From an uncultured Piscirickettsiaceae bacterium (lineage in GTDB: Bacteria; Pseudomonadota; Gammaproteobacteria; Methylococcales; Cycloclasticaceae): a DNA stretch of 64,000 bases. Of this stretch, positions 56,851 to 58,643 are shown piece after piece. The stretch is taken from NCBI GenBank assembly GCA_913061075.1, contig CAJXSK010000008.1, forward strand, positions 1-64,000, given 5' to 3'. The first letter of the stretch is position 1, and each line of letters opens with the position of its first letter. The notes under the pieces were generated by a model, which was given only the letters and a program-made list of their open reading frames with translations, ran no database searches and was not told where the DNA came from. Both the position numbers and the translations under genes were made by a program.

Positions 56851-56876
56851 TACTGTTATACCTTATGGAGAAATAG

Positions 56877-57482
56877 ATGAATATATTACGGATAATCGGA
56901 TTGGTAGCTATTATTTGTTTGCAAGGTTGTGCTGGTGTTGGCGTAATACAGAGCTCCGATCCTGAAGTAAAAATTTCTGATGCCAAACATCTTATGCGGT
57001 ACCCTAATCCCAATCGCCCTTTAATTGCAGAGCGTCTTATTCGTGAAACTATTACAATTTGCAATAACAGTAAATCAGAAAAGTGTTTGGGAAATGCATA
57101 CAACGCTTACGGGTGGTTTTTTCAAGAGGAATCAGTGAGCCGCTATACACATGTATACAAAAAACAAGGTTTCTTACACCCTACCGCAACATACGAAACC
57201 CGCTATAAAATGGCAGAAGAATATTTCAGAAAGGCAGAAGGTATCCAAAAGGATACCTTGCAACATGACAAGCTCACAAATACATATTTTGGTTTAGGTG
57301 TTTTATATTCTTACTATCTTTTAAAACCAGAACTAGCCTGCGCAGCCTATTCAAAAAGTGAAAAGGCTTACCTGAGAAACATTGAATCCAACCCACAAGC
57401 AAATGTAACATTACCGGAAGGCTATTCAACTTACAGTGACTTTTTAGCACCAGAAAAAGAAAAAGCTGGTTGTAATAATTAA
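56877..57482 (+). CDS. hypothetical lipoprotein (cassette 1)
   Basis: signal peptide with lipobox LQGC; SD tatggag upstream. Confidence 0.7.
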   Translation: MNILRIIGLVAIICLQGCAGVGVIQSSDPEVKISDAKHLMRYPNPNRPLIAERLIRETITICNNSKSEKCLGNAYNAYGWFFQEESVSRYTHVYKKQGFLHPTATYETRYKMAEEYFRKAEGIQKDTLQHDKLTNTYFGLGVLYSYYLLKPELACAAYSKSEKAYLRNIESNPQANVTLPEGYSTYSDFLAPEKEKAGCNN

Positions 57483-57485
57483 AGG

Positions 57486-57550
57486 GTATAACAAAAATAT
57501 CAAGCACGACGCGCAAAAGGTGCGCGCGTCTTATATAAAAAACGTTATAT
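57486..57550 (+). other. attC-like recombination site 1
   Basis: GTATAAC AAAAA TATCAAGCACGACGCGC AAAAGGT GCGCGCGTC TTATATAAAAAAC GTTATAT; near-identical to site at 58078-58140. Confidence 0.7.
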
Positions 57551-57568
57551 GTAAAAGGAATTATCAAA

Positions 57569-58075
57569 ATGTTTAGAAAACTACTTAATGGCTTTTTATT
57601 TGGCACCGGTTTTACTGCGGCACTTATCATTGTATTTTTAATTGTTAGCACATTAGATCTATCATTCATAAATAAAACAAGCAGCAGCATAACAACCGGT
57701 GATGAGGCGAATTATGAGGAGCAGCAAAAATGGCGGGCCCTTCCTGAAACAGAAAAAATTTCAAATATTTCTGGTTTAGCCATACTTAGATTTAAAGAAA
57801 GTAAAGATAAACATATGGAAGCGTATGTCGAGACCGTTTTAACTAAAAGCAATCCAACCAACTTACCCCTTAAAATTGGAGAGAGAGTAAAAAAATCGGA
57901 TTATTACGCAAAAGATGGTCATTCCCGCAACAGAAATGGCATTCTAGTTATATACTCTGGCAACCCAGCTAAAGAGGTTGAAGGTGCGTTCCTTTACGAA
58001 GATAGACTTATTTCATACCAAGACATGCCTTTAGAGGTATTTTTAAAAAAGTTCAAAGATAACTCAGGTAATTAA
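57569..58075 (+). CDS. hypothetical membrane-anchored protein (cassette 2)
   Basis: 168 aa, N-terminal TM segment GTGFTAALIIVFLIVSTLDL; SD aaagga upstream; short spacing from attC core. Confidence 0.7.
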   Translation: MFRKLLNGFLFGTGFTAALIIVFLIVSTLDLSFINKTSSSITTGDEANYEEQQKWRALPETEKISNISGLAILRFKESKDKHMEAYVETVLTKSNPTNLPLKIGERVKKSDYYAKDGHSRNRNGILVIYSGNPAKEVEGAFLYEDRLISYQDMPLEVFLKKFKDNSGN

Positions 58076-58077
58076 GC

Positions 58078-58140
58078 ATATAACAAAAATATCAAGCACG
58101 ACGCGCAAAAGGCGCGCGCGTCTTATATAAAACGTTAGGA
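58078..58140 (+). other. attC-like recombination site 2
   Basis: ATATAAC AAAAA TATCAAGCACGACGCGC AAAAGGC GCGCGCGTC TTATATAAAAC GTTAGGA; differs from site 1 core by one T/C change and two A residues. Confidence 0.75.
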
Positions 58141-58643
58141 ATCAGGATGAAATTTAAACTTCTCATTTCAATCATAGCTTTCGCGCATTTGACCGGATGT
58201 GCTTCTGCAATTGTAGCTGGCGTATGTGCTGCAAATAAAGGTGAGAACGACCTATCTGTTCGCACTTACGAATTCACAGCTGAATTGGCCACGAAAAATG
58301 GCCCACTGTCGAAGTCTGCAACGATGGATTGCAAACCTTCGCATTACTATTGTGGTGGCGGAGATTGGTATCCGGTTTTTCCGAAACGAGAAGAGGCTAT
58401 ATTCGCTGTAGTCATAGATCAGCAAAGAACTCTTAACCTTTCTTATCCTGGCTGTGGCTACTCGGAAGGGATCGTTAGTATCTACAAGGAAATTGATGAC
58501 CTACCAATATCTTACCTTACCTTTGATGAAGACACTTATATTTTGTCATTTGCTGAGATTAGGCTAAGAACATCTCTTGAAACTTATGGCGTAAGAGTGG
58601 ATTCTTACAAAATTAGAGAGCGGAACTAGAGCAGATGCCTAAC
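58134..58643 (+). mobile_element. integron-like gene cassette 3 with truncated attC
   Basis: begins GTTAGGA; ends with GCCTAACAAGGCGCTGAA (58637-), typical attC 5' half, but no matching R' half before REP/transposase remnants. Confidence 0.6.
58147..58629 (+). CDS. hypothetical lipoprotein (cassette 3)
   Basis: signal peptide with lipobox LTGC; Cys-rich 160 aa; starts 7 nt after R' core. Confidence 0.7.
   Translation: MKFKLLISIIAFAHLTGCASAIVAGVCAANKGENDLSVRTYEFTAELATKNGPLSKSATMDCKPSHYYCGGGDWYPVFPKREEAIFAVVIDQQRTLNLSYPGCGYSEGIVSIYKEIDDLPISYLTFDEDTYILSFAEIRLRTSLETYGVRVDSYKIRERN

What the first reader, a model, noticed from the sequence alone, without database searches (positions are those of the whole stretch)
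56855..58643. Three-cassette integron-like array (CALIN) carrying envelope proteins, no integrase in window
Two intergenic ~65-bp segments are nearly identical (TATAACAAAAATATCAAGCACGACGCGCAAAAGG[T/C]GCGCGCGTCTTATATAAAA..CGTTA). Each has attC architecture: terminal RYYYAAC-like and GTTRRRY-like boxes, inverted inner arms, and an extra-helical base pattern (TAT-C-AAG). For cassettes 1 and 2, R'' is the exact reverse complement of the R' at the start of the same cassette (GTATAAC/GTTATAC and ATATAAC/GTTATAT), as expected for integron cassettes. Cassette 3 begins GTTAGGA and ends with a GCCTAACAAGGCGCT half-site. All three ORFs look exported or membrane-bound (two lipoboxes, one TM anchor).
Basis: partly seen in the sequence, partly recalled or inferred. 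Interest (0 to 1): 0.82.

Follow-up and report, generated by a model that had tools for sequence, protein, structure and literature searches.

The report
Integrase-less integron with its own attI
This marine oil-degrading bacterium (Cycloclasticus) carries a small set of gene cassettes headed by a copy of the integron docking site (attI) but with no integrase beside it, and its genus has dozens of such scattered docking sites, which suggests that one integrase elsewhere in the genome may serve many cassette-loading spots.

Summary
Both repeats are genuine attC sites: a covariance model built without them finds exactly these two in the window (E 4e-10 and 1e-7), and near-identical attCs sit in arrays beside intI in congeners.

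It is not a bare CALIN. Directly upstream lies an orphan attI (56695-56855) that copies the intI-attI region of an intact integrase elsewhere in the same genome (1 mismatch in the 51-bp core overlap). Cassette 1 starts exactly at its G^TT crossover. The locus is therefore attI + three cassettes (third truncated), without intI, between two conserved genes that are about 180 bp apart in one congener.

The pattern is genus-wide in Cycloclasticus: 54 further attI cores of related types in 17 of 18 genomes, 10 beside a full intI and 44 not. In 40 intI-less windows, 30 carry attC sites, and all 80 attCs detected lie downstream on the attI strand. Two single-contig genomes have 4 and 5 such platforms with one full intI each. 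Copies within a genome resemble each other more than copies in other genomes. At least five keep intI relics.

Best reading: dispersed attI platforms served in trans. Trans activity is inferred, not shown.

The parts
56695..56855 (+). Orphan attI unit: left palindrome TGTGGGACTAAATCCTACATA (from 56697), AT-rich middle, palindromic core 56800-56855 ending ACTG^TT; crossover between 56855 and 56856
   Evidence: 84% identical over the 156-base match to the intI-attI intergenic region of the intact intI at G000:C1:365692-366639; core 1 mismatch in 51; 81% to the intI-attI region of congener G013
56856..57544 (+). Cassette 1
   Evidence: starts at the attI crossover, ends at the crossover G of attC1; its R' GTTATAC is the exact complement of its R'' GTATAAC
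56877..57482 (+). ORF1, 201 aa, lipobox-like LQGC, weak TPR similarity below cut-off
   Evidence: absent from 150 relatives; five database proteins, the other four 40-57% identical and on contigs of 12 kb or less
57486..57550 (+). attC1
   Evidence: CM R1 34.5 bits, E 1.3e-7; fold with T and G bulges on one arm; 1 mismatch between R boxes
57545..58134 (+). Cassette 2
   Evidence: R' GTTATAT / R'' ATATAAC exact complements
57569..58075 (+). ORF2, 168 aa, N-terminal hydrophobic segment
   Evidence: absent from 150 relatives; four database proteins
58078..58140 (+). attC2
   Evidence: CM R1 42.8 bits, E 4.4e-10
58135..58652 (+). Cassette 3, 3'-truncated
   Evidence: starts at the crossover in attC2's R' GTTAGGA; ends in an attC left half only
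58147..58629 (+). ORF3, 160 aa, lipobox-like LTGC
   Evidence: absent from 150 relatives; 81% identical to a hypothetical protein of Microbulbifer sp. JMSA003
58637..58652 (+). Left half (R'' and start of L'') of a truncated third attC
   Evidence: GCCTAACAAGGCGCTG, same start as complete attCs in congeners L018 and L027
58667..58727 (+). Right flank of the array: aligns to the TSCPD-OYE intergenic sequence of the empty site in congener G007
   Evidence: local alignment
55885..56616 (+). Left neighbour: TSCPD-domain protein gene next to nrdJ; conserved in 17 of 18 genomes of the genus

Best explanation
The locus is an integrase-less integron platform: a complete attI copy followed by three inserted gene cassettes (two intact attC sites, the third cut off), inserted between the TSCPD gene and the old-yellow-enzyme gene of a Cycloclasticus chromosome. 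It works like an integron. An integron integrase (most likely IntI-B, encoded at C1:365692-366639 in the same genome, whose own attI is the same site) recognises the orphan attI in trans and joins folded bottom-strand attC of circular cassettes to it at G^TT; attI-borne promoters then express the first cassettes. It is one of many such platforms: Cycloclasticus genomes keep one to three intI genes and several dispersed attI-headed arrays. Shown: the attI copy, attC anatomy, cassette junctions at G^TT, cognate intact intI, genus-wide attI-array linkage and orientation, intI relics at some platforms, within-genome similarity of attI copies. Inferred: recombination in trans, promoter activity, and that platforms arose by loss of intI from full integrons followed by homogenisation with the resident attI.
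For: attC. attI: the window's 56695-56855 matches the intI-attI region at the end of C1 (84%; core 1 mismatch of 51), a second intI-less copy just after thiC at the end of C6, the start of C15, congener G013 beside intI, and an intI-less copy in single-contig genome G014. IntI-B is open over 325 aa, 433 bits to TIGR02249 (cut-off 265), with GLRRME, HTLRHS and the C-terminal Tyr motif. Genus-wide: attI cores of related types at 24 and 30 places in 17 of 18 Cycloclasticus genomes, reversed-pattern control 0, and 0 of 293 other genomes of the order for type D. Of 54, 10 lie beside a full intI and 44 do not. In 40 intI-less windows of up to 10 kb, 30 have attC, and all 80 attCs lie downstream on the same strand, 0 elsewhere. 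Single-contig genomes G008 and G014 have 4 and 5 intI-less platforms and one full intI each. attI copies at different loci of one genome are 67% identical against 61% between genomes; 0 of 2000 label shuffles reach this. G017's copy at one locus is 70/73 like its own intI-attI on the right but 26/27 like the orthologous locus of G001 on the left. The same cassette start follows two different attI types in one genome (L107/L134, 96.5% over 198 bp). intI relics at L128, L131, L136, L146, L147. An empty site is seen in G007.
Against: No recombination, expression or in-trans activity was observed. Array 3' ends and cassette 3 are truncated, so the platform could be a relic. Four of the 44 intI-less copies could not be checked in wider windows, and some sit near contig ends in draft genomes. 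Most orphan attIs show no intI relic, so intI loss as their general origin is not demonstrated. Label shuffles do not fully remove phylogenetic relatedness. The exact extent of attI (IntI binding sites) was not mapped.
Confidence: 0.8

Rival explanations
1. A dead remnant: a full integron once stood here, lost intI, and the attI and cassettes are decaying without further recombination.
For: Cassette 3 is truncated, the right flank carries repeat debris, and intI relics occur at some sister platforms. Xanthomonas integrons are known to be progressively inactivated (PMC12444791).
Against: attI cores stay conserved far better than their flanks (1 mismatch in 51-62 against about 65-76% identity on the left). 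attI copies follow the resident attI type. The R'/R'' pairs of cassettes 1 and 2 are exact. Cassette content differs completely between congeners at the same locus.
Confidence: 0.35
2. A CALIN made by off-target IntI insertion of cassettes into a chance G^TT site behind the TSCPD gene.
For: Congeners G001 and G014 have cassettes just behind the same gene without a recognisable attI, and off-target insertion is a published route to CALINs (PMC8618304).
Against: Off-target insertion does not bring about 160 bp of intI-attI intergenic sequence upstream of the crossover; the window has it.
Confidence: 0.05
3. An assembly chimera joined an attI-array fragment to the TSCPD contig.
For: Contigs C1, C6 and C15 end at this attI core, a repeat that breaks assemblies.
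Against: The window copy has its own SNP and its own diverged left half; the right flank of the array aligns to the TSCPD-OYE intergenic sequence of G007, and both neighbours are in their usual order. The same arrangement occurs in single-contig genomes. ORF1 and ORF3 are both recorded on contigs of up to 377 kb.
Confidence: 0.03
4. A simple dispersed repeat with no integron function.
Against: attC covariance-model hits, intI-adjacent copies in congeners, exact R'/R'' pairing and the attI upstream.
Confidence: 0.01

Closest known systems
[quoted passage not shown] Cury et al., as described in PMC8618304 and PMC9024848)
   Same: At least two attC sites, no intI nearby, small number of cassettes of unknown function
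   Different: Headed by an attI copy whose cognate intI is elsewhere in the genome; many sister platforms of the same build in the genus. None of the papers read describes attI copies away from intI.
Sedentary chromosomal integron (Vibrio, Xanthomonas type)
   Same: attI followed by attC cassettes in one orientation, cassette starts at G^TT, rare genes of unknown function
   Different: intI is missing at the platform; there are several platforms per chromosome instead of one
Xanthomonas CALINs at conserved loci (PMC12444791)
   Same: Cassette clusters at the same chromosomal loci in several species, away from intI
   Different: attI at the head of those clusters is not reported in the passages read

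Membership tests
attC recombination site | R''/R' boxes with YAAC / GTTR and complementary ends | tested here: met
attC recombination site | Bottom-strand hairpin with extrahelical bases on one arm (T and G) | tested here: met
   Site 1: T and G bulges on one arm. Site 2 folds similarly with a less regular minimum-energy structure
attC recombination site | Match to a covariance model built from other attC sites | tested here: met
   R1; R2; covariation across 87 sites found with R2: 253 double changes against 103 in shuffles
attC recombination site | Recombined by an integron integrase | not testable with these tools
   needs a recombination assay
CALIN | Two or more attC sites without intI nearby | tested here: met
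   2 attC; no intI over cut-off on contig C8
Integron (complete) | attI site | tested here: met
   by homology to attI beside intI
Integron (complete) | intI gene adjacent to attI | tested here: not met
   TSCPD stop lies 79 bp left of the attI unit; nearest cognate intI is on contig C1
Integron (complete) | Promoter Pc driving cassettes | tested here: inconclusive
   Consensus scan finds no more promoter-like sites than shuffles

The most novel reading that the evidence does not exclude
Cycloclasticus runs a distributed integron: one or a few trans-acting integrases serve several dispersed attI platforms per chromosome, and the attI copies are kept matched to the resident integrase by conversion or re-seeding, so that the attI unit behaves as a replicating, spreading docking site.
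Probability: 0.5. Interest if true: 0.85.

Novelty: new variant of a known kind. Interest (0 to 1): 0.74.

Why it matters
CALINs are about as common as integrons in genome surveys, and their origin is open: off-target insertion, intI loss or rearrangement (PMC8618304). Standard software does not look for attI outside class 1 (PMC9024848), so attI-headed arrays would be scored as stray attC clusters. Here attI can be recognised by its copies beside intI, and most of the intI-less arrays found in this genus are attI-headed. If integrases act on them in trans, an integron need not be one locus with one docking site; it can be a chromosome-wide set of expression platforms. That is directly testable with resident IntI proteins and short attI fragments.

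Tried and rejected
Loose attC scan: far too many hits, replaced by a stricter scanner. A first genus pattern for the attC was mis-specified and did not even match the window; discarded. The genome search with CM R1 missed the window's own sites because its first look scored only 150 of 478 candidates, so genome-wide attC counts there are lower bounds. P0011 (ORF3 relative) in genome contigs: no relative found, so the cassette status of the Microbulbifer homologue is untested. Rfam search: only two tRNAs. Off-target insertion, assembly chimera and plain repeat were considered and rejected (see rivals). IntI-A at C1:92229 was considered as a trans integrase but has an internal stop. L142/L153 (identical 365 bp after two attIs in G015) was set aside as weak evidence because both run to contig ends.

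Full report
Organism. The window is contig C8, 1-64000, of a 2.26-Mb genome in 20 contigs. A congener contig matching its attI is named Cycloclasticus sp. (JAGPVU010000092.1), so the genus is Cycloclasticus, marine hydrocarbon degraders. The flanks are ordinary housekeeping genes: aspartate kinase, an adenosylcobalamin-type ribonucleotide reductase (nrdJ) with a TSCPD-domain gene behind it, and an old-yellow-enzyme family gene.

The attC sites are real. Bottom-strand folding gives the attC shape; in site 1 exactly two bases, T and G, are bulged out of one arm, the pattern known for attC extrahelical bases (general knowledge). A strict scanner picked these two on the + strand and found attC-like sites beside intI in relatives; its reversed-sequence control gave 0 and 1. 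Fourteen of those other sites made covariance model R1. R1 finds only 58078-58140 (42.8 bits, E 4.4e-10) and 57486-57550 (34.5 bits, E 1.3e-7) in the 64 kb. Sites of the same sequence family stand in arrays beside intI in congeners G008 and G012 and in an intI-less array of G014, 94.7% identical over 57 bp. Across 87 attC sites the L-box stem shows strong covariation (the alignment was fitted to the model, so the percentage paired leans towards it).

The attI was missed. Searching the genome for integron integrases gave three over the NCBIfam cut-off: C1:92229 (one internal stop), C1:365692-366639 (IntI-B, open) and C6:88399 (open). The stretch between IntI-B and the end of its contig is the same as the stretch in front of cassette 1 in the window: 84% over 156 bases, with the palindromic core CTATCGGGATTCCCGATAATACTGTTTTGTGGGAT.CAATCCCATAAAACA differing at one of 51 positions. 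Congener G013 has it beside its intI, followed by a cassette at TACTG^TTA. So 56695-56855 is an attI, and cassette 1 begins at its crossover. No intI fits: the TSCPD gene stops 79 bp to the left.

The locus is an insertion. Cassette proteins 1-3 are absent from 150 relatives including 17 congeners, whereas the TSCPD gene is in 17 of 18 genomes of the genus. In congener G007 the TSCPD and OYE genes are about 180 bp apart with nothing between, and window 58667-58727 aligns to that spacer. At the same place G001 has an attC and a 486-aa ORF, G014 has two attCs with a restriction-endonuclease-like ORF (by eye), and G009 has about 40 bp of its own, different attI at a contig end.

It is a genus-wide arrangement. 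The same attI type has a second intI-less copy just after thiC at the end of C6 and one in the single-contig genome G014, which lacks an intI of that type nearby. Core patterns of two other attI types gave 24 and 30 places in 17 of 18 genomes, reversed-pattern controls 0; type D occurs in none of 293 other genomes of the order. Ten lie beside a full intI and three beside intI pieces large enough for tblastn; 41 have none in up to 1.5 kb on each side, where the contig allows. I fetched windows of up to 10 kb for 40 intI-less copies. Thirty have attC downstream, up to nine sites, and all 80 attC hits lie downstream on the attI strand with none upstream or opposite. G008 and G014 are single contigs, so their 4 and 5 intI-less platforms are not assembly breaks. 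The window genome has seven intI-less attI copies: window, C6:137767, C1:217737, C6:114316, C5:16840, C19:9627 and a partial one at C1:319559.

Do the copies keep up with the resident integrase? Copies at different loci of one genome average 67% identity, copies between genomes 61%, and orthologous loci in different genomes 64%; none of 2000 label shuffles reaches the within-genome value. In G005, G017, G008, G004, G003 and G001 some orphan copies are 85-96% identical to the intI-adjacent attI of the same genome. One copy in G017 is a visible mosaic: left 27 bp like its orthologue in G001 (26/27), right 73 bp like its own intI-attI (70/73). In G011 two attIs of different type are followed by the same cassette start, 96.5% over 198 bp, as expected if the same cassette was inserted at both. 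These fit continued use but do not prove it; genomes such as G014 also hold attI types that do not match their only full intI.

Origin. Five intI-less copies (L128, L131, L136, L146, L147) retain pieces of intI, so at least some platforms are integrons that lost intI; L136 stands at the genus's usual intI locus. Most show no relic, and the conserved unit starts sharply about 100-165 bp left of the crossover, so independent spread of the attI unit is not excluded.

Mechanism and expression. The proposed sequence is: excised cassette circles present folded attC bottom strands; IntI encoded elsewhere binds the orphan attI and joins them at G^TT; the first cassettes are transcribed from promoters in the attI unit. 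Only the products (junctions, pairing of R boxes) are seen. Promoter scanning was uninformative. The cassette proteins are two likely lipoproteins and one membrane-anchored protein of unknown function with few database relatives.

Literature. CALIN formation by off-target insertion, intI loss or rearrangement is proposed (PMC8618304). attI is not sought by IntegronFinder 2 outside class 1 (PMC9024848). Xanthomonas CALINs recur at conserved loci (PMC12444791). One Cycloclasticus symbiont was listed as In0 (PMC10295459). Searches for orphan, multiple or additional attI found nothing relevant in the held library, which holds open-licence papers only.

Noticed in passing
G000:C1:92229-93176 (L015 8230-9177): A third integron integrase gene with one in-frame TAA, i.e. 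a probable pseudogene or sequencing error; attC sites lie about 4.6 kb away on the expected side.
   Followed up: partly
G000:C5:16840 (L118, L168); L107, L108, L120: An intI-less attI core stands just behind a gene whose C-terminus looks like mnmE (by eye) in at least four species, so some platforms are at orthologous loci.
   Followed up: partly
L111 vs L127; L091 vs L135: Same upstream gene but different attI type in different species (types C and D; types B and D), i.e. attI type changes at a fixed locus.
   Followed up: partly
window 58660-59120: Repeats such as GGGGACAGACCCCAATTAA and GGGTCAGACTCGATT and a short ORF start that may be transposase debris lie between the array and the OYE gene; a 40-bp piece recurs beside arrays in G014 and G001.
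   Followed up: partly
L015 around 7822-8330, L017 around 8108-8208: Large perfect inverted repeats (for example TAACGGCAGCCGACAATGAAGCATTGTC) lie right behind the attI of two intI loci in this genome.
   Followed up: no
L091 8570-9572; L080 2408-2910: Near-identical YefM/YoeB-like antitoxin-toxin ORF pairs (by eye) in G014 and in the window's genome (C15), both in attI-headed regions; the antitoxin ORF is duplicated in G014.
   Followed up: no
window 57569-58075: ORF2's database cluster is represented by a 99% variant on two short contigs, whereas ORF1 and ORF3 are recorded on 35-36 contigs up to 377 kb; possible cassette variation, not resolved.
   Followed up: no
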